Shown piece by piece: positions 1,422 through 64,000 of a stretch of DNA of 64,000 bases. Position 1 is the first letter of the stretch. Each line of letters starts with the position of its first letter. The notes beneath the pieces were generated by a model. It was given only the letters and a program-made list of their open reading frames with translations, was not told where the DNA came from and did not search any database. The stretch is from Hydrangea macrophylla (taxonomy: Eukaryota > Streptophyta > Magnoliopsida > Cornales > Hydrangeaceae): NCBI GenBank assembly GCA_033977485.1, contig CM066984.1:33523501-33587500 (forward strand), in the 5' to 3' direction. Both the position numbers and the translations under genes were made by a program.

Positions 1422-1501
1422 TTAAGCTAAAAGACATCATGCAACAATTTCTTTCTGAAAATTTCAGCATTTGGTAGAAGGAAAATGAAAGGAACCCAGA
1501 A

Positions 1502-1511
1502 ATGGGTTCAG
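1502..1511 (+). CDS. AGD12: AGD exon 1 (coding part)
   Basis: Coding part is ATGGGTTCAG followed by the donor GTAATC, giving Met-Gly-Ser and the first base of a glycine codon completed by exon 2. An in-frame stop at 1475-1477 with no ATG between makes this the first usable start in the frame. Phase matches exon 2 exactly, which is the main support. The alternative ATG at 1485 is in a different frame and would not join exon 2 correctly through this donor. Confidence 0.65.
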
Positions 1512-4500
1512 GTAATCTTTGAGGGTTCAGACTTGAATTGGTGCATGATTAGGGTTCACCTGCACACTGCTAGCTGTACTGATATTGGAGTCTGGGAGGT
1601 GGATAAAGAGATATGACGACTTTGACCCATGGGGGTGTTGATATAACTTTCCTCCATATCATGTTTTATCTGTTTCTCTGCGGATGCTATATCGATTAAT
1701 TATATGGAATTGCAATGCAATATGCACCTGCAAGAAATTTGTCAATATACTTTTGACCATACTATGTGTGATATTGTTACAGACTTGATTTACAAGATAT
1801 TGTCATGGCTTTGAATGATACCACTCTTTAAAAGCTTGCTCTTTTTTATTTTATCCCCCCTGTTGTCACAAAGGTATTAAATACCGATCATGCAGGTAAA
1901 AGAAGATTAAAAGACCTCTTGCTTCAAAGGGATAATCGAGTTTGCGCTGATTGTGGTGCTCCAGACCCTAAGTGGGCGTAAGTACAACTGCTTTGATGCT
2001 TTTAGATTTTTGCTTGTGCAAGGATATTCTTTGTATAGGCTATATAGTTGCCGATGAGTTCTTGTAAATCTATCCATAATATCTACTACCTCCGTCCCAT
2101 TTTATGTGTCCCTTTTTGGGAATCCAACTATTTAAGGGGACAAAAGGAATCTACACCTACTTTCCACAATTACCCATAATCATTGCACTTTCTTTTTTGT
2201 TTTGTTTTGGTATTGGTTGTAAGGAAGGACAATTTGGGAAACTAAGTAAAATTTATATACTAATTTAGGAAAGTGGACAACAATTTTGGGACATACCAAA
2301 ATAGAAAGGGGGACGCATAAAATGGGACGGAGGGAGTATATAAGAGCACCGCCCCCTTAAATGTTTTACACCTTTTTGTGCTTCCCAAAATGCACACTCC
2401 ACGTTAAAATTGAGGCTGATAAAATTTGTACTTTTAACTAATTGGTTCATTAACTTTCATATCGAGTCTCCTTAAGTATTCACTTCTCAGTTCTCACTAA
2501 TTATTCTAGTATTATTCTCGTAAAATTTCAATTAGTAATTGCATAATTCGCATCTATTAAGTTTAGGATTACACTTTCTTTTGTAGACAACATCACAAGT
2601 TGTTTTCTTTCTTTCTTTTAATGTTGGTTTAATATCAACTTCTTATAGCAATTCTTTTCTTTAAATTATCATTGTGGGCTTTAAATTTTTTTATTTTTTT
2701 ATTTTTTGATATGAAAGCTAACATTAGGTTACCTTTTATTCTTTACTTCCATCTTATTACCTAATTACTGGGTAGATATAAACTAAATAAAGTTACGATA
2801 ATGAGTCCAAATCCAACTTGAATATTATGTACAAAGATATCAACACCCCTCAAATGTTTTTTTTTTTAAAATCTGGCCTGCTCCACCTAATCATTACATC
2901 ATTTCTGTAAGTATTTTTTTAATAGTGGTCGCTTCCACCTAAGAATTATACAAGAACCCAACTTCAACATAATCACATCTTGCCTAATATGTATACAAGT
3001 TCGACTCGATATTTCTAATTGTTGATTTACAAGAATCCAACTTCAATATAATCACATAATAATTGTAAAATTTTGTAGAATTTTTTTAATCCAACTTTAT
3101 TATAACCGCTTAATGACGAGGTGGCATGGAAATTTATTATGTGAGAGGAGCACTATTCTTTTTTGTAAATTCCTAATTGAAAATTACAATGGTATTTGTA
3201 TAGAGTTCGGCACTTGTATTAAAAATTTGGGTTTAATAAATCTTAAAATAGAATAAGGTGCAAAATTGTTCTGTGTGGTCTTTGATCTTTAACAGAAATA
3301 TCAATTTCAAAACAATTTTTAAAATGAGTTATTGAAACGGTTAGCTGCTTTTTGTCCCAAGCATTGGGAAATTAGTCAAGCTTTCAGTATCATTTTTAAT
3401 TTGTTGGCCTTTATCAAAATAATCTCAAGATTCGTAAATTATTTGAAATTTGCAACATCACTTCTAAGTTCTAACTATGTCATCGACTACGAACTAATAT
3501 TTATATAACAATTAATCTTCTAGAAACTGGAAAAAAAAAGAACTCTCTTCAATGTAACTTGTAAGAGGATGATGGGCATGTCATTTATCAATGAACAAGC
3601 TCCAAATTTATTGTAACAGAATCTCATCTTATCAAACATTATTGTATAACTTGCTTATGACAATAACAATGTTAATACCACAATTACTCCATAGTGATTA
3701 TGTTATTGGTACTCGTACAAATACAAAAGGCTAAATAACATACTAAATGATGCAAATGCAATCAAATTTTCCAGAATGTAAAACCATACCTAAAAGATTA
3801 CATAACATGCATTATTAGATGTCATAACACACAATAAAAATGAGTTAACATATAAATTTTATATGAAAGTTGACCAGAATTCAGTTTTGATATTTATTTG
3901 GCATTTAACTTTTACGTCAAAAACCTGTAAGTCCACACCATATCAGAAATCACCTTAATAAATTCTAGTCCAAGCTTATTGGAAATACGTAGATAAAAGT
4001 CCTGATATATTTAAAAAAGCACCTAAATTAAACATATTAAACTATTGTACAGTGGAACACCTATGAAAGGACAACCAGTATTTATTAAATTATACACAAA
4101 TACTCCCTGAAATGTCAGCTTATACATACTAATACTACAATAGATTTTAGATAAAGAAACTACCCACACAACACTAGCACCAGATTTTTTTTTTCGAGTG
4201 TAGAGTAATACTTTGTTGTCTCAGACAAATAAAAAGGTACCTGAACAAGAACTACGCTAGAGCATGTGCTATGTTTTTTTTTTCTCTCAACTAATGTGAC
4301 ATGGACAACACGACAAAGACACCGTGAAAGTCAAACTTGGAAAAATAGACATGGCAGTGAAACGAGGGCAAAATGGTTTGTATGTAGAAATATATTATGT
4401 ATGACAAATTGATCTTAGGATAAGTAATCCACTATTTAGTTACTTATAGATAGTAAAATGATAATCATGCGTCTTGCTTAGAGAAAGACACAACAATGGC

Positions 4501-7500
4501 AAGATTTTGTTGTGAATATGTTTCTGTAATCATGTGGATAATGTATGTTTGGGGAGGCATATCCGTACATATCTAATAAACTTCCCTCCTACTCCCGTGC
4601 CTACATATCTCACAACACCTACTCAGACGTAGTACTTTAGGACGACAATTGTTGCACCTCACAGGCTAGATCCATCTTGTTATAATCTCTAGCTGTCATT
4701 ATACATATACAAACACAAGCGCGCACACACACACACATATACATACACACACATTGCGCAACACATAAACTTACATATATGTGTTTGTGTTTAAATTTGT
4801 TACTCAATTTTAAAAGGAAAAAAAAAGACGACGCTGTAAAGTAGTTTTGTATTGTGTTTTTCAAAGTCAGATTAATAGTATTTTTATGTTATTTGTTTTG
4901 GCGTTAATACCAGCATGTGAGGGTAGTATAGTGGAAATAAGGTACAAGTGAGGTTAGGTTGTTTTTTTATTTTATTTTATTTTTTTTCCCTAGCTTTTGA
5001 TATTTGTAATTGAATTTTTTAACCAAACTGCCTAGAGCTTTTGTTGGTGGGTTTTGGTCCTCCAAACCTAAATTGTTCTTAATCTCTTCAATTATCTCTT
5101 GATTGAGCCATTTTCGTGCATCATTTGGTATTAGTGTTCTGAGTTTTGAACGTTAATTGTGAATCATTGACTGGAACTTTCCAAGAATTGAGGCCAATTC
5201 AGAGCAAGGAAGTTTGAATTGCTCGATTGAGTATTTCAAATCTGCGACTCACTATGTTACCTGGACTCTCCTACAGTGCCAAGTACCCGATCCTCGTGTC
5301 CGACCCCCGTATCCAATTTGGACACTCGGATCCTCCACAGGTGATGTTGAAAAGGTAATAAGAAGCTAAAACTTGTGGGCAAAGAGGTTTCTAACTATTG
5401 ATATTAAGAAACATAGTATGTTTATACATTCAGAAGGTGTCCGCATACCCGTATCCGCATACCCGTATCCAACGGTTAGACATATGTCCCCGAATACTTA
5501 GATTTGGATTTAGAGGAAGTCCGACACCTAGATACACACCCGCACACAACACCCATACCCGAGTCTGGGTAATATAGGCGGCTCAGGTTTGAAGATATTC
5601 TATCGGAGGAGTTTGCGTTGGAATTAGAGCAATCGATACTTCATTTTTTGAAACCTAGTGGTGTTGCGTAGTTGAATGTTAGACCTATAATTGTTGGAAC
5701 TTCGAACCTATGTGAAATCTAGAGACTCGCGATCCCAAGATGTGCCACTAAATTGTCCACGACTTGATTTTAGCCATAAGTTGCATGTGCAGTTGGGAAT
5801 TATGATTTTGAGGACAAGGAAAGTTCATTGGTCTTCAAAGATGCTTGATGTTGCTCCCACAAGTTATGAAGGATGGTGTGGCTACCAAAGTGAGGGTCTA
5901 CAAGTCAATGTCATTGATTCTTTCGAAGGCCTTCTTTGTATTGATGATGAGAAGGATGATTTGGAAAATTTTGTTGATAAGGAAAAGGGTGACGAATTCA
6001 AGATTTTCACGTTAGGTGATGAGTGTGAATTTTAGTGGTGTAATAGTGGGTGGTAGTGAGAAGAGTTTTGAAGGTGGTGAGTGTATTGGAAAGCTTATGG
6101 ACATGGAAGAGGATTGGGCTTTTGAAGGTTGATGATTGTTGAATTAGAGCCTCCAACCCAAAACCAATTAGCAATGGGTGGAGTAGCTCCATGATCTTAT
6201 ATATTGAGTAGCAAGGCTTTAAATTCCCGATGTGGGAGTAAAATCTCAACACGTCCCCGCACGTGTGGCATGACTTAGAGCCAAACACGTGGATTACTGC
6301 GATAGGGTAACGATGTTTTCCAAGATTGATATTAATAGAAAAGCTATGAGCAAAATGCAGTTGAAGAGATTTTAACACGGGGCGGGGGGAGGGAGAGGGG
6401 GTGTGTGGTGGGGTGATTTGGGGGGAGCTTTTCTCTCTAGTCTCCAGAGAGAAAGCTCCCAAGTGCTTTCATGTCTTCCCTTACCCTCCCCCCTCCCATT
6501 GCTCCTAAACCTTCCTCTCGGCCTCTCTAACCCCTTTATCTGCCACAAAAACATATCATTTGACCTAGTTCTCTTTTCTTTCCCTTTCCAACATTTGCAT
6601 TGGCTTTGATCCATGGGTGTTCGCCTGTGTTGTGTGTCGTTGTATAGTGAGCTAGTGATGATGGGTATTGGCTCGTCGGATAGCAGATTCTAACACCAAG
6701 CTTGACATCCATGGTGTGTGCTTCAAGTTAGAGTTTGATTGCTGGTGTCTTGTGGATTTTAGGGGCTGGATTGAGGTTTTGGGAGCTATAGGAGGGGCTT
6801 CCTTCGTCTTAGTATCTTCCCATGCATAGAAGCACGAAGCGGAACCTGGGGCGGGGACGGGGGCGGGAGCGGGAGTGAGGAAGCGTTAAACTTTTAGAGG
6901 TTCAAAGGTTGGGAGCGTTTAAGAAGCGTCCAAAAATTTGATATAAATATATTCTATATCTAATTATTGTACAGGAATTTAAATTGACATAATATATTTT
7001 GATTGTGAATTTTGTTTTTGAAAGTTTTCAGCCATATGTTCTGACAAAAAAAATATTTCTTCGGTAAAATATTTGAGCAAAATAAGAACTTGAATCTATT
7101 CATAGGCTATTTTGAGACTTGGTTGTGATGGGAGCGGGGTTCTAACACGAGGGGAGCGAGGTTCCGACAAGCTTCTTAGTAAGAAGCGCGGAATCGAGAG
7201 TCTGAGGATGGAACGTGACCAATTTAGAAGGTTCCTGCTTCTAAGTTCCCATGTTCTGAGTTCTATTTCAGCCTTTGGCATATGGGGTTGAGATCTAGCA
7301 ATGTTTTTTTGGTAGACGAGCTTTCATGTTTCAATCTTTATTGAGTCTAGGTCACCATTTTTATTTTTGGTTTTAAGCTTTTGAACTGACCCCTTGCATT
7401 TTTGTATCTGTGATTTAGTCGCATTAGGAGTTTAGTTTTGAAGCATCCTACATTTCAAGAATTTGGGTATGTTGCCTGAATTTTTGGGTGTTCCGATGAG

Positions 7501-10500
7501 GTAGTGGTCGGTTTTTGGCCGGCATTCTTCCTGCATAAGCTTAAGGTTGAAGATGGTCTGTGAGCTGCACGCTCTTGTGTACACGTGGTGATGTTTCTTG
7601 ACACCTGTCCAGTCTTGTTTCCTGTATTCAATTTGGGCGGCATTTCCTGCCAGTTACTTTGAAGCTTGGGTGCCACATTGCGGTATCATGTGATCACATC
7701 GTATGGCTCAAGTTTCATGCCTACCATTGTGTTTGACTTTGGAGTCATTAGTTAGAGGTCTTGTAATTTCATATCCGTTGTGAAGAGGGCGTGAACCAGC
7801 CTGTTTGGATCTCTTGATTAGTGTTCTAGAGGTTGATGTTGATGCGAGCTTGATCTAGTGTGTGTTTGCTAGTATCTTGCAACCATCTTGTTACCCATGT
7901 GACACATGTCCTTGGTTGTGTGCAAGGAGATGTATGTGTGGTCAGTCTTTGGTCTGTGCAACCACATTTATGGTTGAATAGGCTTTTTAGCCTACACGTT
8001 TGTTCAGCTTTTGAAGAAAGTGTAAGGTCATTTCATTTTGTACTGCCCAAGGTAATGGGTAACAGCTTTTTCTTTTGAACTATAAAGACATTTTATGATG
8101 TATGTATTGCCTCATTTTGGGCATGTGTTGACATGTGGAAACCACTAGAGGACGAAAAGCTTGGCTTGTAGCCTAGGCATTTGACTGGTAGACTCCACCA
8201 GTGAACGGAATGGGAAGGGTCGATCCTAACCACGTGCTAGGGATTTTCTGGAGATTGGACAGTTTCAAGCTCATTTTTTATTCTAGTTCCATCTCCCATG
8301 TTTGTTTATGGTTCTGTGCTTTTCCCCTCGGCTTGTGAGGATGCACATTGATTGCCTTTTTAGGCATGTTTTGAGGGAGAGTATGACGTAGTACCTTATA
8401 CTTTAATAGTGGTACTTATATAGTGTAGCACTATAGTCTTTGTTAGTAGTAATGTTATTTGTTTTGGTGATGGTCACCATAGTCGAAACCTTCACAACCA
8501 TAAACCACTATAGCCGAGACCTTCACAACCCTAAACCACCACAGCCGCACCTCACCAACCCCTCCAATCCCTTCGCAAATCCCCTCTCTACCCTAAACCA
8601 CCACAGCCGCACCTCACCAACACCCACCCTCTACACCACCATAACCAAACCTCATCAACACCACCAATCACTTCGCAAACCTCACCAGCATCACCAATCC
8701 ACGCCGCAGCTCTCATCTGACTTAGAAGAACCCCACACAACACCACTAATCCCTTCGCAAATTCCACACAACACCACGATCCCTTCGCAAAAACCATGCA
8801 CTGAATCACAACTCATAATCTCTTCTTTTCTCCCTCTATTGTCACATTGGGCTGATTCCATACATCTGGTAGATTATTTTGATTGGTGTTCACTCCTTCG
8901 TCGGTGCTGTCTCGGTCCTTCTATGGACCCAAGTGGGTAGTTCAGCTTGAGTTTTAAGTGTTGATGTTGCTTCTTGTTCGTTGTTAGTCTTTTTCTTTCT
9001 TATTGGTATAACACTTCCGCTGTTTGTTTGTTGATTTGGTTGACAAGAAAGGTTCTATTATCTCATCTGATGTCGTTTGTATGTAAGTTATTACCACCAA
9101 GTTAAATGGGTTTAATTATTTGTTGTGGGCTTAATCTAGGAAAGTGGCCTTAAGGGCTAGAAAGAAGTTGAAATATATTGAGTCTGGTGCTCTGTCTAAG
9201 GTTAGTAAGGAATATGACAATTGCGTGTATGAGAATTATGTGTTTGTCCTGGTTGTGGAATAGTATGTAACCGTCTGTGTGTTCGAGTGTTATGTTGTTG
9301 TCATCAGCCAAAGACATTTGGGAGTCTATCCATGAAACTTTTTCAATGGAAAAGAATGTTTCTAGAGTGTATGAGGTTTATCAAAATTTGTTTCTGCTTC
9401 AACTGGGTGATAAATCGGTTAGTGAATACTACAACACTTTCAAAGGTTTAATCGATGAATTGAATCAATATCATCCCCTCACAAATGACATTGAAATTAA
9501 CAAGAAGCAACGTGAAGAGTTTTATGTCTCAAAGTTCTTATTTGGATTACATTCGAATCTTCACTCAGTTAAATCCCAAATTTTGGCAAGTGATGATAAT
9601 ATTCCCTCCCTGGGAAATGTGTATTCTTGTGTGCTTCAAGTTACTATTGAATCTTCCTCCCTCTATGAGCGCACGAGCAAAGATAATTCTGCACTTATTA
9701 CATCTACAGGACATAGGGGGCTTTCGTGGACGTGGTAATTATCCTACTCATAATAGGGGTTGTGGTGGTCGTGGTTTTGGTTATTTCAATCCGGTTCCTA
9801 GTAATCGAGGATGGGGAGGTTACCCAGCTCGTGGTCGTGGTTCCGGTCATGATTTTCTTTATTGCACCACCCATTGTGGATGTGACAATCATATTGTGGA
9901 CAGGTGTTATGATATGCATGGTAAACTTTAGGAGACCTCTCCTAATCCTGTCTTATATTCCTTTGATAACTCTGCTGGGTCTCATCAGGAAGTAGGTACT
10001 CCTACTCTACCTGTAGTGGCATCTTCAAATGAGTCTACCACTCTTTCTCGAGAAGAATACAATGCTTTAATCCAACAACAACATCAGCTATCCTTGTCTG
10101 ATACTGTTGGTTTTGCAAAGTCGGGTAACATTGCATGTTTTTCTTCATCTGCTTCTTCACCATGGGTCATTGACTAAGGAGCTTCGGCGCATATGACTAG
10201 TGAGTCTAATGTATTTACACAATTACTTAGACCACCCACACAGTCCTCAGTGGTTTTAGTTGATGGACGGCCTTGTCCTATTATTGGTCATGGTTTTGTT
10301 TCTCCTACTTCGTCTCTTTCATTGTCGTCTGTAAATTATATTCCTCAATTTCCCTCGAGTCTCTTATCAGTCAGTCAACTTACTAAATCTCTAAACTGTT
10401 CTGTAACATTTTATCCCTCTCATTGTGTTTTTCAGGATCTCAACACGAAGAAGATGATTGGTGGAGGTCGTAAGCGTGGTGGTCTTTAGTACCTCGAACA

Positions 10501-13500
10501 ACATTCAACAACTGTTTCACCACATCAATGACACTGTCGTCTGGGTGATCCTTCACTGCAATCCTTGAAGTTGGTTTTTCCATCATTTAAGTCTATGTCT
10601 AGTTTAGAGTGTGAGGCTTGTCAGTGAGTTGGTTCATTCTGACGTTTGGGGTCCATCTAGACATAGGAGTCTGTTAGGTTTTTCTTATTTTGTGTCTTTT
10701 GTGGCTGATTGTTCTAGGATGTCATGGTTATTTTTAATGAAAGAACGCTTAGATTTTTCTTCTATTTTTCAATTTTTTCATAAGAGAGAACTCAGTTTGG
10801 TTGCACTATTCGTATTTTACAATTTGATAATGCTTTAGAATATGTTAAAAGGACCTCTTCAGTCCTATTGTGATTCTCAGGGGATAATTCATTAATCCTC
10901 TTGTGGTTATCCTCCACAACAGAATGGTGTTGCTAACGAAAAAATAGACATCTTCTTGAGGTTGCTCGAACTATTATGCTACATATGCATGCTCCTAAAC
11001 AATTTTGGGGGGATGCTGTACTCACTGCCTGTTATCTTATTAACCGCATGCTTTCATCTATTCTATGTGGTGGCATTCCTCATTCTATTCTCTATCCATA
11101 TAGGTCATTGTTTGCCTTACCACCACGTGTGTTTGGTTGTGTTGCATTTGTTCATGTTCGTACTCCTAGTCTATGTAGCATGGGTACGGACACGGGTACG
11201 ATACAATATGGGTATGGAGGTACGGCAATTTCCAAAAATGTAGGGTACGGGTACGGCTAGGGTACCTTGAATAAATATATATGTAAAACAAAAATATTTT
11301 TAATAATTAAAAAAAGAAAAGAAAAAGAAGAAGATTGAACATCACTACAACATATTAATCCACATATTAGCAAATAAGTGGTTTAAGGACTAAACACCAT
11401 TGTTTTAGCATTACAAGTCCGCAACATTAAAGAAGAAAAAAAATCTAAATAAAAAAGAAGAAGAAGAAGAAGAAGAAGAAGAAGCAAGTCCACTAAGTAC
11501 CCACGCCGTACCCACGCCGTACCCCCCATAGTTGTACCCCCTGTAGTTTTCAAAAAATGCAATATGACCCACGAAGTACCCATGCCTTACCCACAAAGTA
11601 CCCGAGCCGTACCTAAGTTGAATCCTTCACTTAACAGTATCAGGACGTCGCTAGAGGGGTACCCGACACGTACCCAAGAGTATGGTACGGGTGCCGGTGT
11701 CCCCCAAGTACCCGGTACGGGTACGTCACTCAAAATGGAGTACCCATGCTTCTTAGCTCCTGGTCATGATAAATTGGATTCTCGAGCCACAAAATGTGCA
11801 TTTGTGGGATATTCTCGCACTCAGAAAGGTTATAAATGTTGGAATCGTCAGAGTCATTATGTGGTTAGTGTAGATATTACCTTCTTTGAAGGTACATCAT
11901 TTTTTTCTTCCTCCGGTGAATGTTGATGTTCTTGCTCCGTCGTCCTCTGTTCCCTTGCCCATTCCTCTGTCTGCTAGTTCTCCTCCCTTGCAGGTATATT
12001 GCCGTCGTGATAAGCCATCCAGTACTAATGACCCGCCAGCTCCACCTCCATCATCATCAACTTCGGCTGAAGTTCTTTAATCTCCTGATATACCTATCGC
12101 TCTTCGGAAAGGTACTCGTTCTAGCACTCACCATCCTTTTGATAAGGTTGTCTTATATTCTCATTTATCGTCTCCACTTCGTTCCTTTGTGAGTGCTTTA
12201 TCTTCAGTCTGTTCCTAAGTCTCATACTCATGCATTGCTTTCTCCGGGTTGGAAGAGTGCTATGGATGATAAGAATCATAAGATATTGGCATTGCCCAAT
12301 GGTACGTGGGAGTTAACTGATCTTCCTTCTGGGAAACATGTTGTAGGTTGTCGTTGGGTTTATGTGGTTAAGTATCATCCTGATGGTATTGTTGAAAGGT
12401 TGAAAGCTCGTTTGGTGGCTAAAAGGTACACCCCAGACTTCTGGTGTTGATTACTTTGAAACTTTTTCACCTGTGGCTCGCCTCAATTCTGTTCGCATTT
12501 TATTGTCTGTCTCTGTTACTCAGGGATGGCCATTTTATCAACTTGACATCAAGAATGCCTTTCTTCATGACGATCTACAAGAGGAAGTGTATATGGAGCA
12601 ACCTCCTGGGTATGTTGCTCAGGGGGAGTCACATAAAGTATGTAGGTTGAAGAAAGCAATTTATAGCCTTAAACAGTCTCCAAGGGCCTGGTTTGACAAG
12701 TTTTTCCAAGTAGCTGGTTCATATGGGTTGAAAAGAACTAGTTCTGATCATTCAGTTTTTGTGAGACACTGTGAGAAAGGTATGATTGTTCTAGCATGTT
12801 ATGTGAATGTTATAGTGATTGCTGGTAATGACAGTGAAGGTATACAGTTATTGAAGTCTCATTTGGGTAAGCATTTTCATATGAAGGATTTGGGGCTACT
12901 ACGTTATTTCTTGGGTATTGAGGTAGCAAGTTTTAAGGAAGGGATTTTCTTATTCCAAAGAAAGTATGTTCTTGACCTTCTAGATGAAACATGGTTGATG
13001 GGTTCAAAACCTGTTGACACTCCAATGGAATCCAATATAAAGTTTAGTAAACATGATGGAGAAGACATCAATGATGCTGGACGATGTAGAAGACTTGGAG
13101 GTAAGTTGATTTATTTAACCGTGACTTGACCTGATATCACATTCTCTGTAGGAGTTGTTAGTTAGTTTATGCATAATCCCAAGTTATCACATTGGGAGGC
13201 AGTGTGTCATATATTGAGGTGTTTGAAAGGTGCTCTTGGTAAAGGTTTAGTATGAAACCTTTAGATAACTTGGAGATAGTTGGTTTCTCAGATGCAAGTT
13301 GGGCTGGCGATAGTCTTGATAGACGTTCATTATCAGGATTTTGTGTATTTGTTGGTGGAAATCTTGTCAGCTGGAAGAGCAAAAAGCAGAATGTCGTTGC
13401 CAGGTCAAGTGCTGAGGCCGAGTATAGAACTATGGCTCATACTGCGTGTGAGTTGTTATGGGTGATGGGATTTGTCAGTAGTAAACCTATGAAGATGTAT

Positions 13501-49909: not shown

Positions 49910-49955
<46 letters not shown>

Positions 49956-53034: not shown

Positions 53035-53054
53035 CACCAAAGCCCCTCTCATAT

Positions 53055-53126
<72 letters not shown>
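53055..53126. repeat. Compound (TG)n(AG)n microsatellite
   Basis: About 12 TG units followed by about 24 AG units, exactly at the truncated end of copia F RT. The - strand frame continues from RT into the repeat as Leu-Ser and Thr-His runs. Confidence 0.95.
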
Positions 53127-53129
<3 letters not shown>

Positions 53130-53580
53130 ACCCTTCTGGTTGTTGTATATAGATGTTCTCCTCAAGATTGCCATTCAAGAATGCAGTCTTGACGTTCATC
53201 TGCCATATCTCATAATCTAGGCATGCAGCAATGGATAAGAGTATTCTGATGGACTTGAGCATGGCTATCGGCAAGAAGGTTTCCTCATAGTCAATGCCAT
53301 CCCTCTGAGTATAACCTTTCGCTACAAGTCTAGCCTTATAGGTCTCAACCTTTCCATCATATCCTCTTTTCCTCTTGTAGATCCACTTACAGCCAATGGG
53401 TTTAATATTGGCTGGAAGTTCTACAAGATCCCAGACCTGATTAGAATCCATAGATTCCAATTCAGCCTTCATAGCTTTAACCCAATGAATTGAGTCTACA
53501 TCAGCCATTGCCTCTTCGTATGTGGTAGGATCAGATTCAGATTCTATGGAGACAGCTTCAAAAACTTCTCTTAAGAACAT
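53127..53580 (-). pseudogene. Element F reverse transcriptase, N-terminal half
   Basis: [24 protein letters not shown] sequence, then CKWIYKRKRGYDGKVETYKA, GYTQRDGIDYEETFLPIAML and [20 protein letters not shown], ending at the microsatellite before the YVDD box. Non-functional. Confidence 0.9.
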
Positions 53581-53671
53581 GTATCTATCAGGCTGGCTGA
53601 TAATCCTCCCACTACGACGAGGTACTGGTGCAGAAATGGGTGAAGAAGTGGTATTTTCTTGATTTACATCG

Positions 53672-54545
53672 TTACCAACTGCGGGTTGGACTGAGGGCTC
53701 TCTTTTTCTCTCTCAGATCTATCCTTCCCTTAGGTTTATGGTTCATGATATAATCATCCTCCAAGAAAACAGCATTTGTACTAACAAACACTTTCTGTTC
53801 ACTTGGATCATAAAAATACCATCCATAAGTACCCATTAGATACCCTATGAAGTAACATACTTCCGATCTACAATGTAACTTGCTCATCTTTCCTTTCAGC
53901 ACATGTGCCGGACACCCCCATATTCGAAGATGTTGCAAAGAAGGCTTGTGCCCAATCCACATCTCCCGTGGTGTTCTGGGAACAAATTTGCTTGGTACTA
54001 GATTTAGTATGTACGCAGCAGTTTCCAAAGCATAACCCCAAAGGAATAATGGCAACTCCGAATAACTCATCATCGACCTAGTCATGTCTAAAAGCGTTCG
54101 GTTCCTTCTCTCCGCTACACTGTTCTGCTGAGGCGTACCAGGTGCAGTCAATTGTGACAGAATCTCATTCTGTACGAGGTGATCAATAAACTCATAAGAG
54201 AGGTACTCGCCACCTTGATCAGATCGAATGGTCTTGATATGTGTTCCTAATTGCTTGTCCACTTCAGCCCTAAACTTTTTGAATTTTTCAAAGGCTTCAG
54301 ACTTGTGCTGCATTAGGTACACATATCCATACCTAGAGTGGTCATCAGTAAATGTGATGAAATACTCATAACCACCCCTAGCTCTAATATTTATTGCTCC
54401 ACACACATCAGTATGAACTATGAACTAATTCCAACAACGCATTGGTCCTATTGCTCTTTACTGGAAAGGGTTTTTTGGTCATCTAACCCTCTAGACAAGA
54501 CTCGCAGACTTCCATTGGTTCGAGAACCAAATCGCCTAAGACCCC
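53672..54545 (-). pseudogene. Element F integrase
   Basis: Open for 245 codons to 54406: [40 protein letters not shown] (second catalytic Asp), [20 protein letters not shown] (catalytic Glu) and [20 protein letters not shown]. The first catalytic Asp region (HTDMCG in relatives) is split by a frame break just upstream. The central domain is otherwise well preserved. Confidence 0.88.
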
Positions 54546-56124
54546 TTATTTGACTAGTCTGCCAATCTTATTTAGATTGATATGGCCACGCCTCATATGC
54601 CAAAGTTTTGTTGGATTAGTGGAAGGTTCCTTTATTTTAGATGGTATAGTTACCACTGAGTTATTAAGTTCCATACAAGAATCTTTAGAAATATGGGGAG
54701 TAATCACATACAAACCATTTGATTTAACACCAGAACAAATAAAAGAACCATTTCTTTTTATCACAACTTCAGTTCCAAAATGAAAAGAATAATCATTGTT
54801 CGATAAATTTGAAACTGAAATTAAATTAAGTCTCATTGAAGGGACGTAAAGTACATCTGATAAAATCAAAACTTTATTGTCTAGAAATTCTAAAACTACG
54901 ACTCCTATAGCAACCGCAGATACGGTTGCACTAGAACCTAGAGTAAGTACGATCTCCCCATCACTACACCTCCTGGTTGATATGAACCCTTGCAATGAAT
55001 TACAGATATGGTTTGTCGCACTCGAATCAATGCACCAAGTGTTTGAAGTATCAGTTATAAAACTTACTTCAATCACATGTGATTCAATCATACCTTGAAC
55101 TCTTATAGTTAAGAATTCTGGACAGTTCCTATTCCAGCGGCCTTTCTCACCGCATTGGAAACACTTTCCTTTGTCTTGACCACCCACCTTCCCTTTGCCC
55201 TTACCTTTTCCCTTAGATTTTGCAATCTTAGGGACCGGTCCAACACTTGGACCATCAGTGCCAGCCTTCTTCTTCCCTTTCTTGCCTTTCGGTGTAGATC
55301 GGGAGGAAGAAGAGCTTTTCTCAACGTTCAAAACGTTGCCCCCAGGTTTGATCATCCCTTCCTCTGCCAGTAAAGAACTCATCAATTCGTTCATTGAGAA
55401 ATATATTTTATTCATATTACTCCCTCCGTCCCATTTTATGTGTCCATCTTTCCTTTTTGGGATGTCCCAAAATTGTTGTCCACTTTCCTAAATTAGTATA
55501 TAAATTTTACTTAGTTTCCCTAACTACCCTTCCTTGCAATCAATACAAAAATAAAATAATAAAAAAAAAGTGCAATGATTATGGGCAATTGTGGAAAGTA
55601 GGTGTAGATTCTTTTTGTCCCCTTAAATAGTTGGACTCCCCAAGATGGACACATAAAATGGGACGGAGGGAGTATAATTTAGTTTAATTTGAGCGAATGA
55701 CAGCGACAACGTATTGAGGATCATATCAACTTGGGTCTGTGCATCGATGTTGGCACCTAGGGTCTCCAGCTCGTTCAAATAACCAATCATTTTTAAAACA
55801 TGTTCTTTGACTGGAGTCCCTTCCGACATCTTAGCACTCATTATACCTGGCAGGCCTGCCATGCTCCCCAAACATCTTTTTCAGGGATTCGATAATGTCA
55901 CTGGCAGAATTGTTCGACTGGAATTGGTGTTGCAACACACCAGCCATTAAGGCCAGAATGTAGCAACGGGCCATTCCATTCGACTTCTTCCATTTATCGA
56001 ACTCGCGTTTGTCAGCTGCAGTTAATACGATGTCAAGGTTTCGTTTCCATTCAGTGTAGTAATTTCCAGTTAACTTGTTTTGAGTGAATATTGTGGCAAG
56101 TGGACTAAATGTAGATCCAGACAT
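54546..56124 (-). pseudogene. Element F gag and protease, split by a Stowaway
   Basis: Starts MSGSTFSPLATIFTQNKLTG at 56124, followed by YYTEWKRNLDIVLTAADKRE; compared with G, 63 bp (21 codons) are deleted in frame here. The Stowaway at 55420-55672 interrupts gag after LNYNMNK-type sequence. The zinc knuckle is CFQCGEKGRWNRNC, with the zinc-binding His changed to Arg. Protease motif WCIDSSATNHIC has DSS in place of DSG. Pre-integrase WHMRRGHINLNKIGRLVK ends the frame. Confidence 0.88.
55420..55672. mobile_element. Stowaway-like MITE copy 3, in gag of F
   Basis: CTCCCTCCGTCCCATTTTAT to ATAAAATGGGACGGAGGGAG, flanked by TA. The sister element G has the uninterrupted sequence TTCATATTATAGTTTAG at 62717-62733, a related empty site that confirms the ends and the TA duplication. 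Confidence 0.96.
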
Positions 56125-56162
56125 TATGATTTACTGAAAAAATTAAAAGACAAAATAAATAT

Positions 56163-56590
56163 CTTAGAAGCACGAAGCGGGGGCGGGGGCGGGGGTGGGG
56201 GTGTAGCGGGCTAGGAAGCGTTAAACTTTAAGAGGTTCAAAGGTTGGGAGCATTTAAGAAGCGTCCAAATAGTTGATATAGATATATTTTATATCTTATT
56301 ATTGCAGAGGAAATTAGATTGACATAATATATGTTAGATTGTAAATTTTGTTTTGAAAGCCTTAAACCATGTGCTCCGACATAAAAATATTTTTTCGGTA
56401 AAATATTTGAGCAAAATAAGAACTTGAATTTATTTATAGGCTATTTTGAGACTTGGTTGTGATGGGGGCGGGGTGGGAGCGAGGTTTTAATATGAGGGGA
56501 GCGAGGTTCCGACAAGCTTCTTAGTAAGAAGTGCAGAATCGAGAGTCTGAGGAGGGAGCATGACCAATTTAGAAGGTTCCTGCTTCTAAG
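56163..56590. mobile_element. hAT MITE family 1, copy 2, 8-bp TSD and empty site
   Basis: Ends CTTAGAAGCACGAAGC and, inverted, CTTAGAAGCAGGAACC; TSD ATAAATAT perfect at 56155-56162 and 56591-56598. Element G has the uninterrupted ACAAAATAAATGTGGATATC at this position (around 63281-63300). Closely alike to the copy at 6825-7245. Confidence 0.96.
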
Positions 56591-56828
56591 ATAAATATGG
56601 ATATCAGAATTTGACAGTTTGAAATAAAAGAATCTTTAAAACTTTTATTTTAAAACAAAGTCGCCGGAATATCAAAACGAAAGAGTAAAGCCTCCGTGTG
56701 GTGGTCAATACTCGATCTTTCGATCAATCATGACTTGTCCGCTATGCAACTCTTGCAAAACAAAGTTATGACTCCCGAACCTATTTGATCTCTAACTTTC
56801 TGAATAATGTCCCGTGTGGGATCACTTA

Positions 56829-59253
56829 TGTTAGGAAACTGCGTTACCAGAATCCGTTGACAGTGCGTATACTGCAAAAATTTACGTGAAAGCTACAATA
56901 ACCCTACAAGGGCGGAACTAGGGTTACCTTGAACTGCAAAAACGGATTGTTGTAGTAGACGAATCGAGAATACGGGCTCGATAATAGCTCACGATCTTCT
57001 ACCGTATTCCTCTGCTGCCAGAATATTGAACTGAGTGTGGGCTCTATCGAAATCCTTTTACTTTTCTACTCTCACTTTTTACGCTCTCTTTTCTATTTCG
57101 AGTTGTAATACTCTATATGGAAAAACGCAAACTGAGAGGAGAACCAAAGTAGCATATATATAGATTACGATAGGGACCATAAGAAGTCAACAAGGAATAG
57201 GCTTACATATGGAATTAGGAAACCCCAATTCGAACTGAATTAGATTCCTATTTCAATAAATTATAATTCATACCACTAAAGAATTATAATTGCACCCCTA
57301 CCCTTATCACAAAAATATATTTCGAGCTCCATGTTATTAAATGCTTATTATCTCCCCACGTTAAGATTACAGATATTCATTGATCAAATATAATTACTGA
57401 CAATCATATTTAATTATTCTCTTAAAATTCCTTGAGATTATCTATTAACTTATTTGATATGTCGGATACAAAATCCACCTGCAGGGTTTGATATAATCAA
57501 AACTTATAAACTTTCTCAAGGGGATATCATCAATCCCAAAAATTGAGACATGGATTCCATCATTAATTTATATCCACCACACAATCAATATTGTCACCCA
57601 ATCCAATGAGATATTGACTCATTTAAGGATCTCACCATTTTAGGGATAAAAGTGTAAATATCAAATGTATATGTCTATAAATTAACTTAGGATTTAGAGC
57701 ATAAACACTCATAATAGCCATGAGGTATTAATTATCTTATAAATCAGTATAAAGATAATGAAAAATTAATGGTTTAAATTGAAAGTTTAAACGCGCAGCG
57801 GAAAAATCAAGTTATAAAAACTTATTGGTAGCCCAGGATCTACCACCCGTCAATTTTATAGATGCGTACTAACTAGTAAAGGGACAAGTATTATACCTTT
57901 GTGTCTTGAACCCAATTCTGAAATCTTCAACTTCCAGCAGCCTTCACTAGATGGCCTTCACTCTTCTGACTCCTATGGATGCTCGCAGGAAGGACTAGGA
58001 TTGGTGGGAACCCTAATGAAGAGGGTTGGGAAGGTTTAGGGAAACCTAAACAGTTTCTGCAGCTTCTACGTATAAAAACGACGATTAAAAACATTCAGTA
58101 CGCAGCTGCCCTATTTATAGATTCCCAGAACCGACCTAACCTTCGAGCGATCGAAGTGTATTCGATCGATCGAACCTTCGATCGATCGAACAACCCTCGA
58201 GCGATCGAACCTGCCTAGACTTCAATCGATCGACACTCCTTTGATCGATCCCTTGACATGATCCTCATGTGCCCTTCCAAGCTTCCTAGCGGAGCTAAGA
58301 GTGGGACCTCCTAGGCTCTTTATTCTTGGCTCAGACCAGTTTGTTAATCACCGTGACCAAACTCTTTGATCAGCAAACTAACTAACTGGTCAGTTAACGT
58401 TTACTCCACTATAAAACGATAACTGAACTCCAATGCAAAAGAACATATCTGAAGCGATAACTAGACTTGTATGTTGTACTAATGTCCCTCTACCTTCAGC
58501 ATTCGTAATCAAATTCACGTAGTCGGATAACTGTTACTGTCAACCTGAATCATAATTACTTCTTGTATTCCTTGAGTCCCGTTCACCTCTCATGATTACC
58601 AAACATGTTGATAACTCTTATCAACAAGACTGCAGTACTCAGTAATCGACTTGGTGACATTCTCAAGGGAATGCTTACTCTGAAACAGAGGGTAGATTCT
58701 GTCTTGACAATGTATGTTCACAACCCTATGAACATGACATACCCACGATACCCAATTGTTGATCTTCTGTAGACCTCACTGATTGGTAAGTCAAAGTAGC
58801 CATATCCATAGTCTGTGTTCATAATCGTCGCAAGATTAAGAACACGTACCTTATACAAGTTATGAGTTCCTATTGATTGTTTGACAGCATTAAGTGTCAA
58901 TAGAAAAGCTCAGGTCCATCAATGCACTATAAGCACTAGCATATTAACTAAGAGTGACACTCTAGTGATTGAGATTAATCACTCCATCCAATGGTAGTTA
59001 ATTATGCTACAGTGTATACCTGATGAGAAATCCAGTCTCATCATCCACTATGGCAAGCTTTAAGTATCAAAAAATGGTAATTCATATCTCACTTGTATGA
59101 ATCTCATACACACACGAATTACCTACTATGATACTTAAGGATTGAAAATCATCTCATGAATTAAACATACATAATGAAATGTAAAACTGATATCCATATA
59201 TTAAAATGCTAATGTCATACATAAAGTAATGGTTTGAGGGCATAAACCCAACA
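56829..59253 (-). repeat. Copia LTR sequence: 3' LTR of G, possibly two abutting LTRs
   Basis: The right end ATAAACCCAACA (59253) is, on the - strand, TGTTGGGTTTATGCCCTC, the start of G's LTR, next to the purine-tract complement AACTCCCACTT. The left end TGTTAGGAAACTGCG would be a CA terminus. The interior has two sets of - strand promoter-like TATA sequence (complements of TATATATAG near 57160 and TATTTATAG near 58110) and an inner end-like motif TTAGAGCATAAACACTCA near 57696-57713, so it may be a 2.4-kb LTR or two LTRs of about 0.9 and 1.5 kb. Confidence 0.6.
58142..58246. repeat. Cluster of TCGATCGATCGA palindromes in the LTR
   Basis: At least six CGATCGA or CGATCGATCG motifs in 105 bp, such as TTCGATCGATCGAACCTTCG, arranged in pairs. 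The block lies just downstream (in LTR direction) or beside the TATA-like sequence of the LTR. It is analogous in layout to the TCGACCGGTCGA block in the solo LTR at 16.5 kb. Confidence 0.85.
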
Positions 59254-59268
59254 AACTCCCACTTGCAC

Positions 59269-60388
59269 TCACAACCATACAGGATTACGTCTGAGACCTA
59301 GACTATCTAGATGACGATCAAAGACCTTCTGTGGCAAGGCCTTTGTAAACGGATCAGCAAGATTGTCGACGGTGGCAATCTTGCTGACAGTCACATCTTC
59401 ACGTTGAACAATATCTCGGATAAGATGATATTTCCGCTCTACGTGCTTTCCCTTTCCGTGGTTCCTTGGCTCCTTGGACTGAGCCACCACTATTATCACA
59501 ATAAAGCGTAATAGGTGACAGCGACGCTGGTACCACCTCGAGCTCCATAAGGAAATTCTTGAGCCAAACAGTTTCCTTTGCGGCTTCACAAGCAGCCACA
59601 TACTCAGCTTCTGTAGTTGAGTCTGCAATGCATTTCTGCTTAATGCTTCTCCAACTAACAGCACCACCTCCCAAGGTAAAGAGATGACCATACGTCGACT
59701 TTCTCGAATCTTTATCTGACATAAAGTCCGAGTCAGTGTATCCTACTGGAATTAACTCACTACCACCTTACATAAGCATGTAATCTTTAGTACTTCTCAA
59801 GTACTTAAAAATGCTCTTAACGGCTGTCCAGTGCTCTGGACCTGGATTCGATTGATACCTGCTGACCATGCCAACGGCAAAACAGATATCTGGTCTAGTG
59901 CATAACATCATATACATGAGACTTCCCACTGCCGAGGCGTAGGGAATTCCTGACATGCGATTCCTCTCCTCCTGTGTCTTAGGACACTGTTCCTTAGAGA
60001 ACGCTAAACCATGCCTGAAAGGTAACAAACCTTTCTTCGAATTATCCATTGAAAACCTAGTCAGCACCTTATCGATATAACCAGCTTGAGATAATCCCAT
60101 TATCTTTCGCTTGCGATCCCGAAAGAGCTTTATCCCAAGAATATAGCTCGCCTCTCCTAGATCCTTCATATCGAATGTACTAACTATCCAAACCTTGACC
60201 GTTGACAATGCCGCTACATCATTCCCAATGAGTAGAATATCGTCAACGTAAAGCACAAGAAAGGCCATCACTTTCCCTTCACACTTCTTGTATACACAAG
60301 GTTCATCCAGATTCTGTATGAAACCAAACGACTTGACCACTTTGGTCAAATCGGATGTTCCAACTCCTGGATGCCTGCTTAAGCCCAT
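59269..60388 (-). pseudogene. Element G RT C-terminal part and RNase H
   Basis: RT continues [20 protein letters not shown] and an intact YVDD (VLYVDDILLIGND), then DMKDLGEASYILGIKLFRDR and LMYMMLCTRPDICFAVGMVS. RNase H: SDKDSRKSTYGHLFTLGGGA, KCIADSTTEAEYVAACEAAK, ITLYCDNSG, with a frameshift near 59480 before HIEVKYHLIRDIV-type sequence and ADPFTKALPQKVFDRHLDSL. A frame break at 60303-60388 separates this from the upstream RT. Confidence 0.9.
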
Positions 60389-62018
60389 AAATGGACTTTT
60401 GCAGCTTGCATACCAAGTTACCTTTCCGACCAGCTATGAACCCTTCTGGTTGTTGCATATAGATGTCCTCCTCAAGATTGCCATTCAAGAATGCAGTCTT
60501 GACGTCCATCTGCCAGATCTCATAATCTAGGCATGCAACAATGGATAAGAGTATTCTGATGGACTTGAGCATGGCTACCGGCGAAAAGGTTTCCTCATAG
60601 TCAATGCTCTCCTTCTGAGTATAACCTTTCGCTACAAGCCTAGCCTTAAAGGTCTCAACCTTTCCATCAGATCCTCTTTTCCTCTTGTAGACCCACTTAC
60701 AACCAATGGGTTTAATATTGGCTGGAAGTTCTACAAGATCCCAGACCTGATTAGAATCCATAGATTCCAATTCAGCCTTCATAGCTTTAACCCAATGAAC
60801 TGAATCAACATCAGCCATTGCCTCTTCGTATGTGGTAGGATCAGATTCAGATTCTATGAAGACAGCTTCAAAAACTTCTCCTAAGAACATGTATCTATCA
60901 GGCTGACTGATAATCCTCCCACTACGACGAGGTACTTGTACGGAAATGGGTGAAAAAGTGGTGTTTTCTTGATTTACATCGTTATTAACTGCGGGTTGGA
61001 CTGAGGGCTCTCCTTCCATCTCTCTAAGATCTATCCTTCCCTTAGGTATATGGTTCATGATGTAATCATCTTCTAAGAAATCAGCATTTGTACTAACAAA
61101 TATTTTCTGTTCTCTTGGATCGTAAAAATACCATCCATAAGTACACTTTGGATACCCTACGAAGTAACATACTTCTGATCTAGAATCCAACTTGATCATC
61201 TTTCCTTTCAGCACATGTGCCGGACACCCCCATATCCGGAGATGTTGCAAAGAAGGCTTGCGCCCAATCCACATCTCTCGTGGTGTCCTGGGAACAGATT
61301 TACTTGGTACTAGATTTAGTATGTATGCAGAGGTTTCCAAAGCATAACCCCAAAGGAATAATGGCAACTCAGAATAACTCATCATCGACCTAGTCATGTC
61401 TAAAAGAGTCCGATTCCTTCTCTCTGCTACACCGTTCTGCTGAGGCGTACCAGGTGCAGTCAACTGTGACAGAATCCCATTCTGTACGAGGTGATCAATA
61501 AACTCATTAGAGAGGTATTCGCCACCTCGATCAGATCGAATGGCCTTGATATGTGTGCCCAATTGCTTCTCCACTTCAGCCCTAAACTCTTTGAACTTTT
61601 CAAAGGCTTCAGACTTATGCTGCATTAGGTACACATATCCATACCTAGAGTGGTCATCAGTAAATGTTATGAAATACTCATAACCACCCCTTGCTATAAT
61701 ATTTATTGGTCCACATAAATCAGTATGAACTAATTCCAACAATGCATTGGTCCTATTGGTTTTTGCAGGAAAGGGCCTTTTGGTCATCTTAACCTCTAAA
61801 CAAGACTCGCAAACTTCCATTGGTTCGAGAATCAAATCGCCTAAGACCCCTTCTTTGACTAGTCTGCCAATCCTATTTAGATTGATATGGCCAAGCCTCA
61901 TTTGCCAAAGCCTTGTTGGATTAGTGGAAGGTTCCTTTCTTTTAGATGGTACAATTACCATTGAATTATTAAGTTCCATACAAGAGTCTTTAGAGATATT
62001 GGGAGTAATCACATACAA
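60303..62018 (-). pseudogene. Element G integrase and RT N-terminal part (571-codon open frame)
   Basis: Pre-integrase zinc finger: [12 protein letters not shown] ... CESC. Integrase catalytic triad appears complete: VHTDLCGP (Asp), [12 protein letters not shown] (Asp), [14 protein letters not shown] (Glu). Then the [12 protein letters not shown] region, a linker ending [15 protein letters not shown], and RT with [40 protein letters not shown] and [20 protein letters not shown]. The frame ends by frameshift soon after. This is the longest intact coding stretch in the window. Confidence 0.93.
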
Positions 62019-62178
62019 GCCATTAGTTTTAACACCAGGATATATAAAAGAACTATTTCTTTTAATAACAACTTCTGTTACGAAATGAAAAGACTAACCA
62101 TTATTTAATAAATTTGAAACTGAAATTAAATTACGTCTCATCAAAGGGACGTAAAGAACATCTGATAAAACTATTGTC

Positions 62179-63255
62179 TTATTGTCCAAAAACTCTAAAA
62201 CTACTACTCCTATAGCAACCGCAGAAAACGGTTGCGCTAGAACCCTGAGTCAGCACGATTTCCCCATCACTGCATTTCCTGGTTGATCTGAATCCCTGCA
62301 ACGAATTACAGATATGGTTAGTCGCACCAGAATTAATGCACCAAGTGTTTGAAGTATGCGTAATAAAATTTACTTCAATCACATGTGATTCAATCATATC
62401 TTGAACTCTTGTAGCTAAGAATTTTGGACCGTTTCTCTTCCAGTGGCCCTTCTCACCGCATTGGAAACACTTTCCTTTGCCTTGGCCACCCACCTTCCCT
62501 TTGCCCTTACATTTTCCCTTAGATTTTGCAATCTTAGGAACCGGTCCAACACTTGAACTACCGGTGCCAGCTTTCTTCTTCCTTTTCTTTCCTTTCGGCA
62601 TAGATCGGGAAGAGGAAGCGCTTTTCTCAACGTTCAGAACGTTGACCCTAGGTTTGATCACCCCTTCTGCTGCCAGTAAAGAACTCATTAATTCGCTCAT
62701 TGAAAAATCCATTTTATTCATATTATAGTTTAGTTTAAATTGAGCGAATGACAGTGACAGCGTGTTGAGGATCATATCAACTTGGGTCTGTGCATCGATG
62801 TTGGCACTTAGGGTCTCCAGCTCATTCAAATAACCAATCATTTTTAAAACATGTTCTTTGACTGGAGTCTCTTCCGACATCTTAGCACTCATTATCTTCT
62901 GCATAGCTACCTGTCTAGCAGGCTTGCCGTGCTCCCCAAACATCATCTTTAGGGATTCGATAATGTCACTGGCGGAATTGTTTGACTGGAATTGGTGTTG
63001 CAGCATACCAGCCATTGAAGCCAGAATGTAGCAACGAGTCATTCCATTCGACTTCTTTCATTTATCGAACTCGCGTCTGGCAGCTGCCGAAGCGTTTGCC
63101 GCGGGTTTTTCGGGGCATGGGGTGGTGAGGACATATATGTGATCCTCCGCAGTTAATACGATGTCAAGGTTTCGTTTTCATTCAGTGTAGTTATTTCCAG
63201 TTAACTTGTTTTGAGTGAGTATGGTGGCAAGTGGACTAAATGTACATCCAGACAT
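62179..63255 (-). pseudogene. Element G gag and protease
   Basis: Starts MSGCTFSPLATILTQNKLTG, then KRNLDIVLTAEDHIYVL and CPEKPAANASAAARREFDK, with a stop within KRNL-flanking sequence and before KKSNGMTRCYIL. The 287-codon open part has SASDIIESLKMMFGEHGKPA and NELETLSANIDAQTQVDMIL. The zinc knuckle CFQCGEKGHWKRNG has lost its last Cys. Protease motif is WCINSGATNHIC (Asp to Asn). Confidence 0.9.
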
Positions 63256-64000
63256 TATGATTTACTGTAAAATCAAACAAACAAAATAAATGTGGATATC
63301 AGAATTTGACAATTTTGAAATAAAAGAATCCTAAAAACTCTTATTTTAAAAACAAAGTCGCCGAAATATCGAAACGAAAAAAAAAATAAAGCCTCCGTGT
63401 GGTGGTCAATATTCGATCTTTCAATTAATCATGACTTGTCCGCTATGCAACTCTTGCAAAACAAGTTATGACTCCCGATCCCTTTTGATCTCTAAGTTTC
63501 TGAATAATGCCCTGTGTGGGATCCCTTATCCATAGCTTAGCTAGTGTGTACCATTAACTAGGATCCATTCACAACCGTCTCAAGTAGCGCCTCCGTGTGG
63601 TGGTCACCCTCTAACACGTCTGATTGTTCCTATCCCAAGGAAGTTCACATCTAGTAACCAATGAGTAGCGTACCCTCCGTATGGAATGATCACCCCTGGC
63701 GAGGTGACACAGAATGCACTACCCATCTTACAGTGAACCGTTAATGGAAGATCGTGGGTGTTTATAAATAAGACCCTCTCCCACTAGATTTAATAAGAAA
63801 ATGATTTTGCTTCTGAAAAGGTGTTTCCACACATTACCCATAAACATCCAATGTTTACTAATGCGTTGAAAATGGTTTTTGAATTTTATTTTAGAAAACG
63901 TGTTTTACGTGCATGCGAGTAATAACAATATAATTAAATGCCAATCACAAACCAAGCACATAAAACAAAAAACTAAATGAAATATATGCATTCAAACAAT

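What the first reader, a model, noticed from the sequence alone, without database searches (positions are those of the whole stretch)
1502..64000. ArfGAP-C2 gene stretched over more than 50 kb by intronic retrotransposons
Six exons with matching phases and canonical splice sites encode an unbroken ArfGAP plus C2 start, yet introns 2, 3 and 6 are about 20, 28 and more than 12.6 kb and are mostly nested transposons. Exon 3, only 76 nt long and carrying the catalytic arginine, is isolated between two giant introns. A gene that stays intact with such introns is a good case for studying splicing through repeats.
Basis: partly seen in the sequence, partly recalled or inferred. Interest (0 to 1): 0.75.

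Follow-up and report, generated by a model that had tools for sequence, protein, structure and literature searches.

The report
Plant ArfGAP-C2 gene, transposon-filled introns
This looks like an ordinary, complete plant membrane-traffic gene whose introns have been swollen by mobile elements, a common state in large plant genomes; a second near-identical copy sits elsewhere on the same assembled chromosome.

Summary
Mostly confirmed. Five of the six claimed exons (1896-51350) lie where stated, in phase and with GT-AG sites, and encode an AGD12/ZAC-type ArfGAP plus the start of a C2 domain. The missing C2 exons lie past the window, at window-coordinates 71009-71104 and 78042-78323; introns are 20.2, 28.2, 19.7 and 6.9 kb plus short ones. 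The 10-nt first exon is unproven: 109 of 120 relatives have at least six more residues there, no such exon was found in about 40 kb upstream, and 141 of 1000 shuffles give a like candidate.

A second complete copy lies on the same contig, inverted, about 12 Mb away: 0.30% substitutions over 88.9 kb, one coding difference, intron 2 of 9.9 instead of 20.2 kb. Transposon presence/absence, stepwise divergence with synteny kept, and other same-chromosome twins suggest an unmerged allele; not proved.

Transposon-filled giant introns are common in large plant genomes (11.7% of Cornus officinalis introns exceed 12 kb, PMC12860560). Ordinary; low interest.

The parts
1502..1511 (+). Candidate exon 1 (ATGGGTTCAG|GT), encodes MGS + first base of a Gly codon; unproven
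   Evidence: In phase with exon 2 and followed by GTAA; 109 of 120 relatives have 10 or more residues here; 141 of 1000 shuffles give a like candidate
1896..1977 (+). Exon 2, 82 nt: KRRLKDLL...CADCGAPDPKW, first half of the ArfGAP zinc finger
1978..22195 (+). Intron 2, 20,218 nt, GT-AG; 9,899 nt in copy B
2081..2343 (.). Stowaway-like MITE (TGGGACGGAGGGAG end; approximate limits); relatives at about 51908-52175 and 55416-55681
   Evidence: the Stowaway label is recalled
2483..2497 (+). Excision footprint CTTCTCA-G-TTCTCAC of the hAT type; copy B still carries a ~0.6-kb element here with terminal repeat CAAGGATCAAAATTT and target duplication CTTCTCAC
   Evidence: the footprint rule is recalled
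6825..7245 (.). 421-bp hAT-like MITE flanked by TTCCCATG; its left end is also the left end of the 8.75-kb stretch 6825-15578 that copy B lacks
9271..13737 (+). Decayed copia-type retrotransposon pieces (gag, SH3-like, RVT_2)
16231..18396 (.). 2.17-kb insert absent from copy B, TG...TA ends, 5-bp flanking repeat TTATC (solo-LTR-like)
22196..22271 (+). Exon 3, 76 nt: SANIGVIICLKCCGVHRSLGTHISK, rest of the zinc finger and R48
22272..50480 (+). Intron 3, 28,209 nt, GT-AG; 29,689 nt in copy B, which has a ~1.49-kb solo LTR (TG...CA, duplication ATTAT) at window 28258-28263
25509..26765 (-). Reading frame with copia-type reverse transcriptase (RVT_2) in intron 3
26606..34057 (.). Two ~1.25-kb direct repeats (26606-27851 and 32790-34057, K2P 0.042), both starting TGTCAC; not shown to be the LTRs of one element
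50481..50644 (+). Exon 4, 164 nt
50991..51129 (+). Exon 5, 139 nt
51234..51350 (+). Exon 6, 117 nt, start of the C2 domain
51351..64000 (+). Intron 6, window part (whole intron 19,658 nt; next exon 71009-71104, last exon 78042-78323 in extended window coordinates)
52954..56829 (-). Partial copia-type element holding a Stowaway-like MITE and a ~427-bp hAT-like MITE
57759..64000 (-). Copia-type element running on to 66637; LTRs 57759-~59254 and ~64965-66637, K2P 0.040, flanked by AAAGATAA; a ~0.18-kb MITE sits in its right LTR

Best explanation
The window holds the first six of eight recognised exons (the first of them only a candidate) of a complete AGD12/ZAC-type gene: an Arf GTPase-activating domain plus a C2 domain, expected to switch Arf GTPases off at membranes. 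Its introns grew by insertion of copia-type retrotransposons, solo LTRs and hAT/Stowaway MITEs. Inferred, not shown: the whole ~76 kb is transcribed, the elements are kept heterochromatic, and the machinery known from Arabidopsis (IBM2/EDM2) keeps such introns from causing premature polyadenylation, so that ordinary GT-AG splicing joins the exons. The second copy 12 Mb away is more likely (about 0.7) the other allele of a heterozygous plant left in the assembly than a real duplication.
For: Spliced frame open over 966 nt with ArfGap (129.7 bits) and C2 (87.6 bits); up to 92% identity to asterid AGD12 proteins. All 8 exons recur in copy B, 7 of 8 identical with 20 nt on each side, the eighth with 1 difference; this is 1 coding difference in 966 nt against 269 in 88,872 aligned bases, about 3 expected, so no proof of selection. 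An ArfGAP-C2 paralogue on C16 has its exon pieces within ~4.1 kb, so the class needs no long introns. Retrotransposon domains in 12 of 20 reading frames scanned, 11 of them above Pfam's cut-off. For the allele reading: three clean transposon presence/absence differences inside the gene and one upstream; substitution density steps up at ~79,048 while order is kept at 94-97%; six locus pairs with the same query range and at most 0.2 bit difference, each pair on one chromosome (counted by eye).
Against: No RNA evidence. Exon 1 unresolved. F38I is unique against 120 of 120 listed relatives, though 62 of these 120 have at least one such rare change themselves. Against the allele reading: both copies lie on one assembled contig in gap-free stretches, inverted and 12 Mb apart; PRP8 (PF08083) was found at one place only; if the plant is Hydrangea macrophylla, its authors did purge haplotigs and report only 5.1-6.5% duplicated BUSCOs for their two assemblies (PMC10734616).
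Confidence: 0.88

Rival explanations
1. Copies A (this window) and B (C3:21.73-21.93 Mb) are a real, recent inverted segmental duplication, so the plant has two AGD12-type genes per haploid genome.
For: Same contig, opposite orientation, no N in 114 kb of A and 130 kb of B; near-identity over about 200 kb, half of it aligned and the rest sampled by four probes; PRP8 at one place; low BUSCO duplication reported for Hydrangea macrophylla, if it is that plant.
Against: Divergence is a mosaic: 0.3%, then about 3-6% with order kept, as expected for two haplotypes rather than the edge of a duplication; twin loci elsewhere also lie on one chromosome each. For Hydrangea macrophylla 'Veitchii' the authors found no haplotype-purging pipeline effective because of high heterozygosity (PMC10734616, passages read).
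Confidence: 0.27
2. The gene is decaying or silent: the giant introns or loss of the original first exon have made this copy a pseudogene that only looks intact.
For: Canonical exon 1 not found in ~40 kb upstream; F38I at a site invariant in the 120 listed relatives; a second copy exists.
Against: No stop, frameshift or broken splice site in exons 2-8 in either copy. The LTRs of an element in intron 6 differ by K2P 0.040, so that intron has been large far longer than A and B have been apart, without visible decay of the exons.
Confidence: 0.1
3. The true 5' exon lies more than about 39 kb upstream of exon 2 and intron 1 is another giant intron; the 10-nt exon is a chance match.
For: 109 of 120 relatives have 10 or more residues before KRR, typically ..LGRPSSG; no such exon in the stretch scanned; 141 of 1000 shuffles hold a like candidate.
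Against: The N-terminus varies (MTSNKRR in P0035, MFLAGKRR in P0101), so a short start is possible; the candidate has a good donor (CAG|GTAA), and 86% of shuffles have no candidate at all.
Confidence: 0.5

Closest known systems
AGD12/ZAC-class ArfGAP-C2 proteins of asterids (Sarracenia, Rhododendron, Davidia, Nyssa)
   Same: Domain order, length, 90-92% identity over the window exons in these four; ZAC of Arabidopsis is described with the same two domains (PMC4140167, passages read)
   Different: N-terminus as drawn is about 10 residues shorter; F38I
Transposon-filled ultra-long introns of large plant genomes (Cornus officinalis, PMC12860560; Chloranthus, PMC8626473; passages read)
   Same: Introns above 12-20 kb with LTR retrotransposons in intact genes
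   Different: Nothing essential; here a near-identical second copy shows intron 2 at half the length
Arabidopsis genes with heterochromatic intronic TEs handled by IBM2/EDM2 (PMC4417168, passages read)
   Same: Transcription must run through silenced TEs in introns (inferred here)
   Different: Dependence on IBM2/EDM2 not tested; Arabidopsis intronic TEs are mostly short (17% of intragenic TEs reach 1 kb)
ArfGAP-C2 paralogue at C16:13286351-13290424 of the same genome (AGD11-like; label recalled)
   Same: ArfGAP and C2 exon pieces in the same order
   Different: Compact, about 4.1 kb; 53% identity to an AGD12 relative in the last exon

Membership tests
AGD12/ZAC-class ArfGAP-C2 | ArfGAP domain with C-X2-C-X16-C-X2-C zinc finger and arginine | tested here: met
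   PF01412 129.7 bits; C20, C23, C40, C43 and R48 in the spliced translation
AGD12/ZAC-class ArfGAP-C2 | C-terminal C2 domain after a linker | tested here: met
   PF00168 87.6 bits at residues 165-251
AGD12/ZAC-class ArfGAP-C2 | N-terminal extension as in most orthologues | tested here: inconclusive
   No matching exon in ~40 kb upstream, but the true first exon may lie further off, and 11 of 120 relatives also have fewer than 10 residues there
AGD12/ZAC-class ArfGAP-C2 | GAP activity on Arf, lipid binding | not testable with these tools
   needs protein
TE-expanded long-intron gene | Introns >12 kb containing identifiable TEs with exons intact | tested here: met
TE-expanded long-intron gene | Spliced mRNA across the long introns | not testable with these tools
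   no RNA reads available

The most novel reading that the evidence does not exclude
Copies A and B are a real, very young inverted duplication (about 200 kb or more) of a working gene, one with a 20-kb and one with a 10-kb intron 2, the latter shortened by a deletion that starts exactly at a hAT-MITE end: a natural matched pair for measuring what intron length and intronic transposons cost.
Probability: 0.25. Interest if true: 0.35.

Novelty: new member of a known kind. Interest (0 to 1): 0.17.

Why it matters
Little on its own: long TE-filled introns in intact genes are routine in large plant genomes. The useful part is the pair of near-identical copies (allelic or duplicated) whose introns differ by defined transposon events, including a readable hAT-type excision footprint; with RNA they would allow a matched comparison of splicing through a 20-kb and a 10-kb intron. 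It also warns that gene counts from this assembly may include alleles counted twice.

Tried and rejected
Tried without result: tRNA scan and Rfam scan at gathering threshold, no hits. Search for the canonical first exon by residue profile over 21.9 kb of A and 39.7 kb of B upstream of exon 2: best hit STLGPMAS at window -18861 in A and its twin in B, judged chance. Probes L033 (A 33,323,001), L034 (A 33,123,001) and L050 (A 33,363,001) did not match at the predicted places in B within about 15, 5 and 2.5 kb, so the upstream edge of the copied block was not found; drift by indels cannot be excluded. Seven probes (L029, L035, L038-L042) were not looked for at a predicted place; in the fetched A and B stretches they gave only repeat-family or short matches or none. 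DNA searches of the whole genome with L033 and L034, and a control search with PF00447, did not complete.

Considered and rejected: that the exons are a chance match; that the 8.75-kb difference in intron 2 is a clean retrotransposon insertion in A (no LTR pair and no target duplication around it seen; a deletion in B starting at the hAT-MITE end fits better). Left open: whether the 26.6/32.8-kb repeats are the LTRs of one element (no matching CA end seen).

Species: not given. The published assemblies have 169 or more scaffolds, not 19, so this is only an inference.
Full report
What is there. The six claimed exons were checked base by base. Exons 1896-1977, 22196-22271, 50481-50644, 50991-51129 and 51234-51350 have GT-AG boundaries and phases that join into one open frame. 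The 196-aa product matches 945 of 1063 candidate proteins at E <= 0.001, of which the best 120 are listed. Among the best named ones are proteins of asterids: Sarracenia 92%, Rhododendron 92%, Actinidia 90%, Davidia 90%, Nyssa 90%. Pfam finds ArfGap. That R48 is catalytic is general knowledge of ArfGAPs, not tested.

The rest of the gene. The window is C3:33,523,501-33,587,500 of a 2.22-Gb genome held in 19 contigs. Reading on, tblastn with a Nyssa homologue finds the two missing C2 exons, refined to 71009-71104 and 78042-78323 in window numbering. Intron lengths are 384 (if exon 1 is real), 20,218, 28,209, 346, 104, 19,658 and 6,937 nt. The 321-aa product has ArfGap (129.7 bits) and C2 (87.6 bits).

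First exon. The 10-nt exon 1502-1511 is the weak point. Of the 120 listed relatives none starts MGSG, 109 have 10 or more residues before the K of KRRLKDLL where the window has 4, and 82 have 14; most read like MS..LGRPSSG. A profile scan of 21.9 kb of A and 39.7 kb of B upstream of exon 2 found no credible exon of that kind. The real upstream 1895 nt have two ATG-to-donor candidates of the right phase; 141 of 1000 dinucleotide shuffles have at least one, mean 0.156. The start is open.

The second copy. The ArfGap search showed a twin of equal score on the same contig, opposite strand. 130 kb around it (copy B) were compared with 114 kb around the window (copy A). They are collinear and inverted. 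Over the six main blocks (window -19,999 to 80,258), 88,872 aligned bases differ at 269 (0.30%), plus 76 small indels. All 8 exons are present in B, 7 of them identical with 20 nt on each side; the coding sequence differs at one base (D291N). About 3 would be expected at the overall rate, so this is no test of selection. Probes show near-identity up to A 33,403,001 = B 21,932,431 (100%), with 33,443,001 at 99.7%, 33,463,001 at 99.8% and 33,493,001 at 99.7%. Downstream, substitution density rises from about 5 to 40 per 2 kb, from window 79,048 on, and probes at A 33,627,001 and 33,637,001 still match B in order at 93.8% and 96.8%. Of 16 A probes fetched (15, 1), 6 had a collinear partner, 3 were looked for at the predicted place and not found, and 7 were not looked for at a predicted place. 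A search of the whole genome with a full-length Davidia relative shows only these two loci at AGD12-like identity (72-95% per exon piece of 30 residues or more, apart from exon 2, where the match runs into intron and reads 62%); counts from this search are lower bounds.

How the introns differ. (i) At window 2483-2497 A reads CTTCTCA-G-TTCTCAC, while B carries a ~0.6-kb element with terminal repeats CAAGGATCAAAATTT between two CTTCTCAC: A shows an excision footprint of the hAT type (the footprint rule is recalled). (ii) A has 6825-15578, absent from B; its left end is exactly the left end of a 421-bp hAT-like MITE whose TTCCCATG duplication is intact in A. A deletion in B is the simpler reading because the stretch shows no LTR pair or target duplication of its own. 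(iii) A has a 2.17-kb insert 16231-18396, TG...TA, flanked by TTATC. (iv) B has a 1.49-kb solo LTR in intron 3, TG...CA, flanked by ATTAT. (v) Upstream of the gene A has a ~0.3-kb MITE (ends GGGCTCG/CGAGCCC, flanked by TAA) that B lacks. Intron 2 is therefore 20.2 kb in A and 9.9 kb in B.

Allele or duplication. For alleles: low and patchy divergence with order kept beyond the most similar block, transposon presence/absence as between haplotypes, and other twins on one chromosome. In one search, six locus pairs have the same query range and scores within 0.2 bit (C3, C18 at 103.6/105.6 Mb, C10, C8, C1 and C18 at 66.6/66.9 Mb); each of the six pairs stays on one chromosome (counted by eye; the last is only 0.26 Mb apart and may be tandem). 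Two slightly looser pairs lie on different chromosomes (C8/C14 and C7/C4, within 0.4 bit). At DNA level I compared two of the six: C10 98.9% over 3.2 kb, C18 (103.6/105.6) 95.8% over 2.4 kb. Against: the two copies are 12 Mb apart, inverted, without gaps nearby, and PRP8 is found at one place. I put the allele reading at about 0.7. If the plant is Hydrangea macrophylla, its authors describe high heterozygosity and that no haplotype-purging pipeline worked for one cultivar, but they also purged by hand with Hi-C and report only 5.1-6.5% duplicated BUSCOs (PMC10734616, passages read), which cuts both ways. The species was inferred from size and relatives only.

Transposons. Of 20 reading frames >= 150 aa sent to Pfam (of 21 listed), 12 have a retrotransposon domain at E <= 0.001, 11 of them above Pfam's own cut-off; RVT_2 and the gag models mark copia-type elements (RVT_2 as a copia mark is recalled). 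An element at 57759-66637 in intron 6 has LTRs 4.0% apart (K2P) and an 8-bp flanking repeat. At rates usually assumed for plants (1.3e-8 to 7e-9 per site and year, recalled) that is about 1.5-3 million years, so this intron was large well before A and B parted. Recognisable elements cover at least 26%, 56% and 81% of introns 2, 3 and 6 (intervals set by hand).

Is it special? In Cornus officinalis, of the order Cornales, 13,567 introns (11.7%) exceed 12 kb, and genes with longer introns were reported as more highly expressed (PMC12860560, passages). In Chloranthus 876 genes among 2,184 chosen orthologues are longer than 20 kb, with LTR elements in the introns; expression falls only for introns above 40 kb (PMC8626473, passages). 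In Arabidopsis, heterochromatin on intronic elements together with IBM2/EDM2 keeps transcripts from ending early (PMC4417168, passages). The compact ArfGAP-C2 paralogue on C16 (about 4.1 kb) shows that the gene class needs no long introns. The finding is a clean but ordinary example. I searched for no report on this very gene beyond one search for AGD12 (one paper).

Noticed in passing
window 2483-2497 versus copy B, about C3:21,809,048-21,809,670: Excision footprint of the hAT type in this copy, with the element still in place in the near-identical copy B.
   Followed up: yes
C4 about 54.4-54.7 and 60.1-60.3 Mb; C10 95.6/98.6 Mb; C18 103.6/105.6 Mb; C8 89.0/99.8 Mb; C1 48.5/124.2 Mb: Other same-chromosome twin loci for ArfGAP or C2 genes at Mb distances; on C4 two genes recur at a nearly constant 5.6-5.7 Mb offset, as if a whole block were present twice.
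   Followed up: partly
window 1232-1439 and extended window 65326-65502: A palindromic MITE (TTGGGACACA...) ends 62 nt upstream of candidate exon 1, and a relative lies inside the LTR of the intron 6 copia element.
   Followed up: partly
exon 3, residue 38: Isoleucine where 120 of 120 listed relatives have phenylalanine (GVFICLKC); shared by copy B.
   Followed up: no
window 6825-15578: A probable deletion in copy B that begins exactly at a hAT-MITE terminus, possibly excision-associated.
   Followed up: partly
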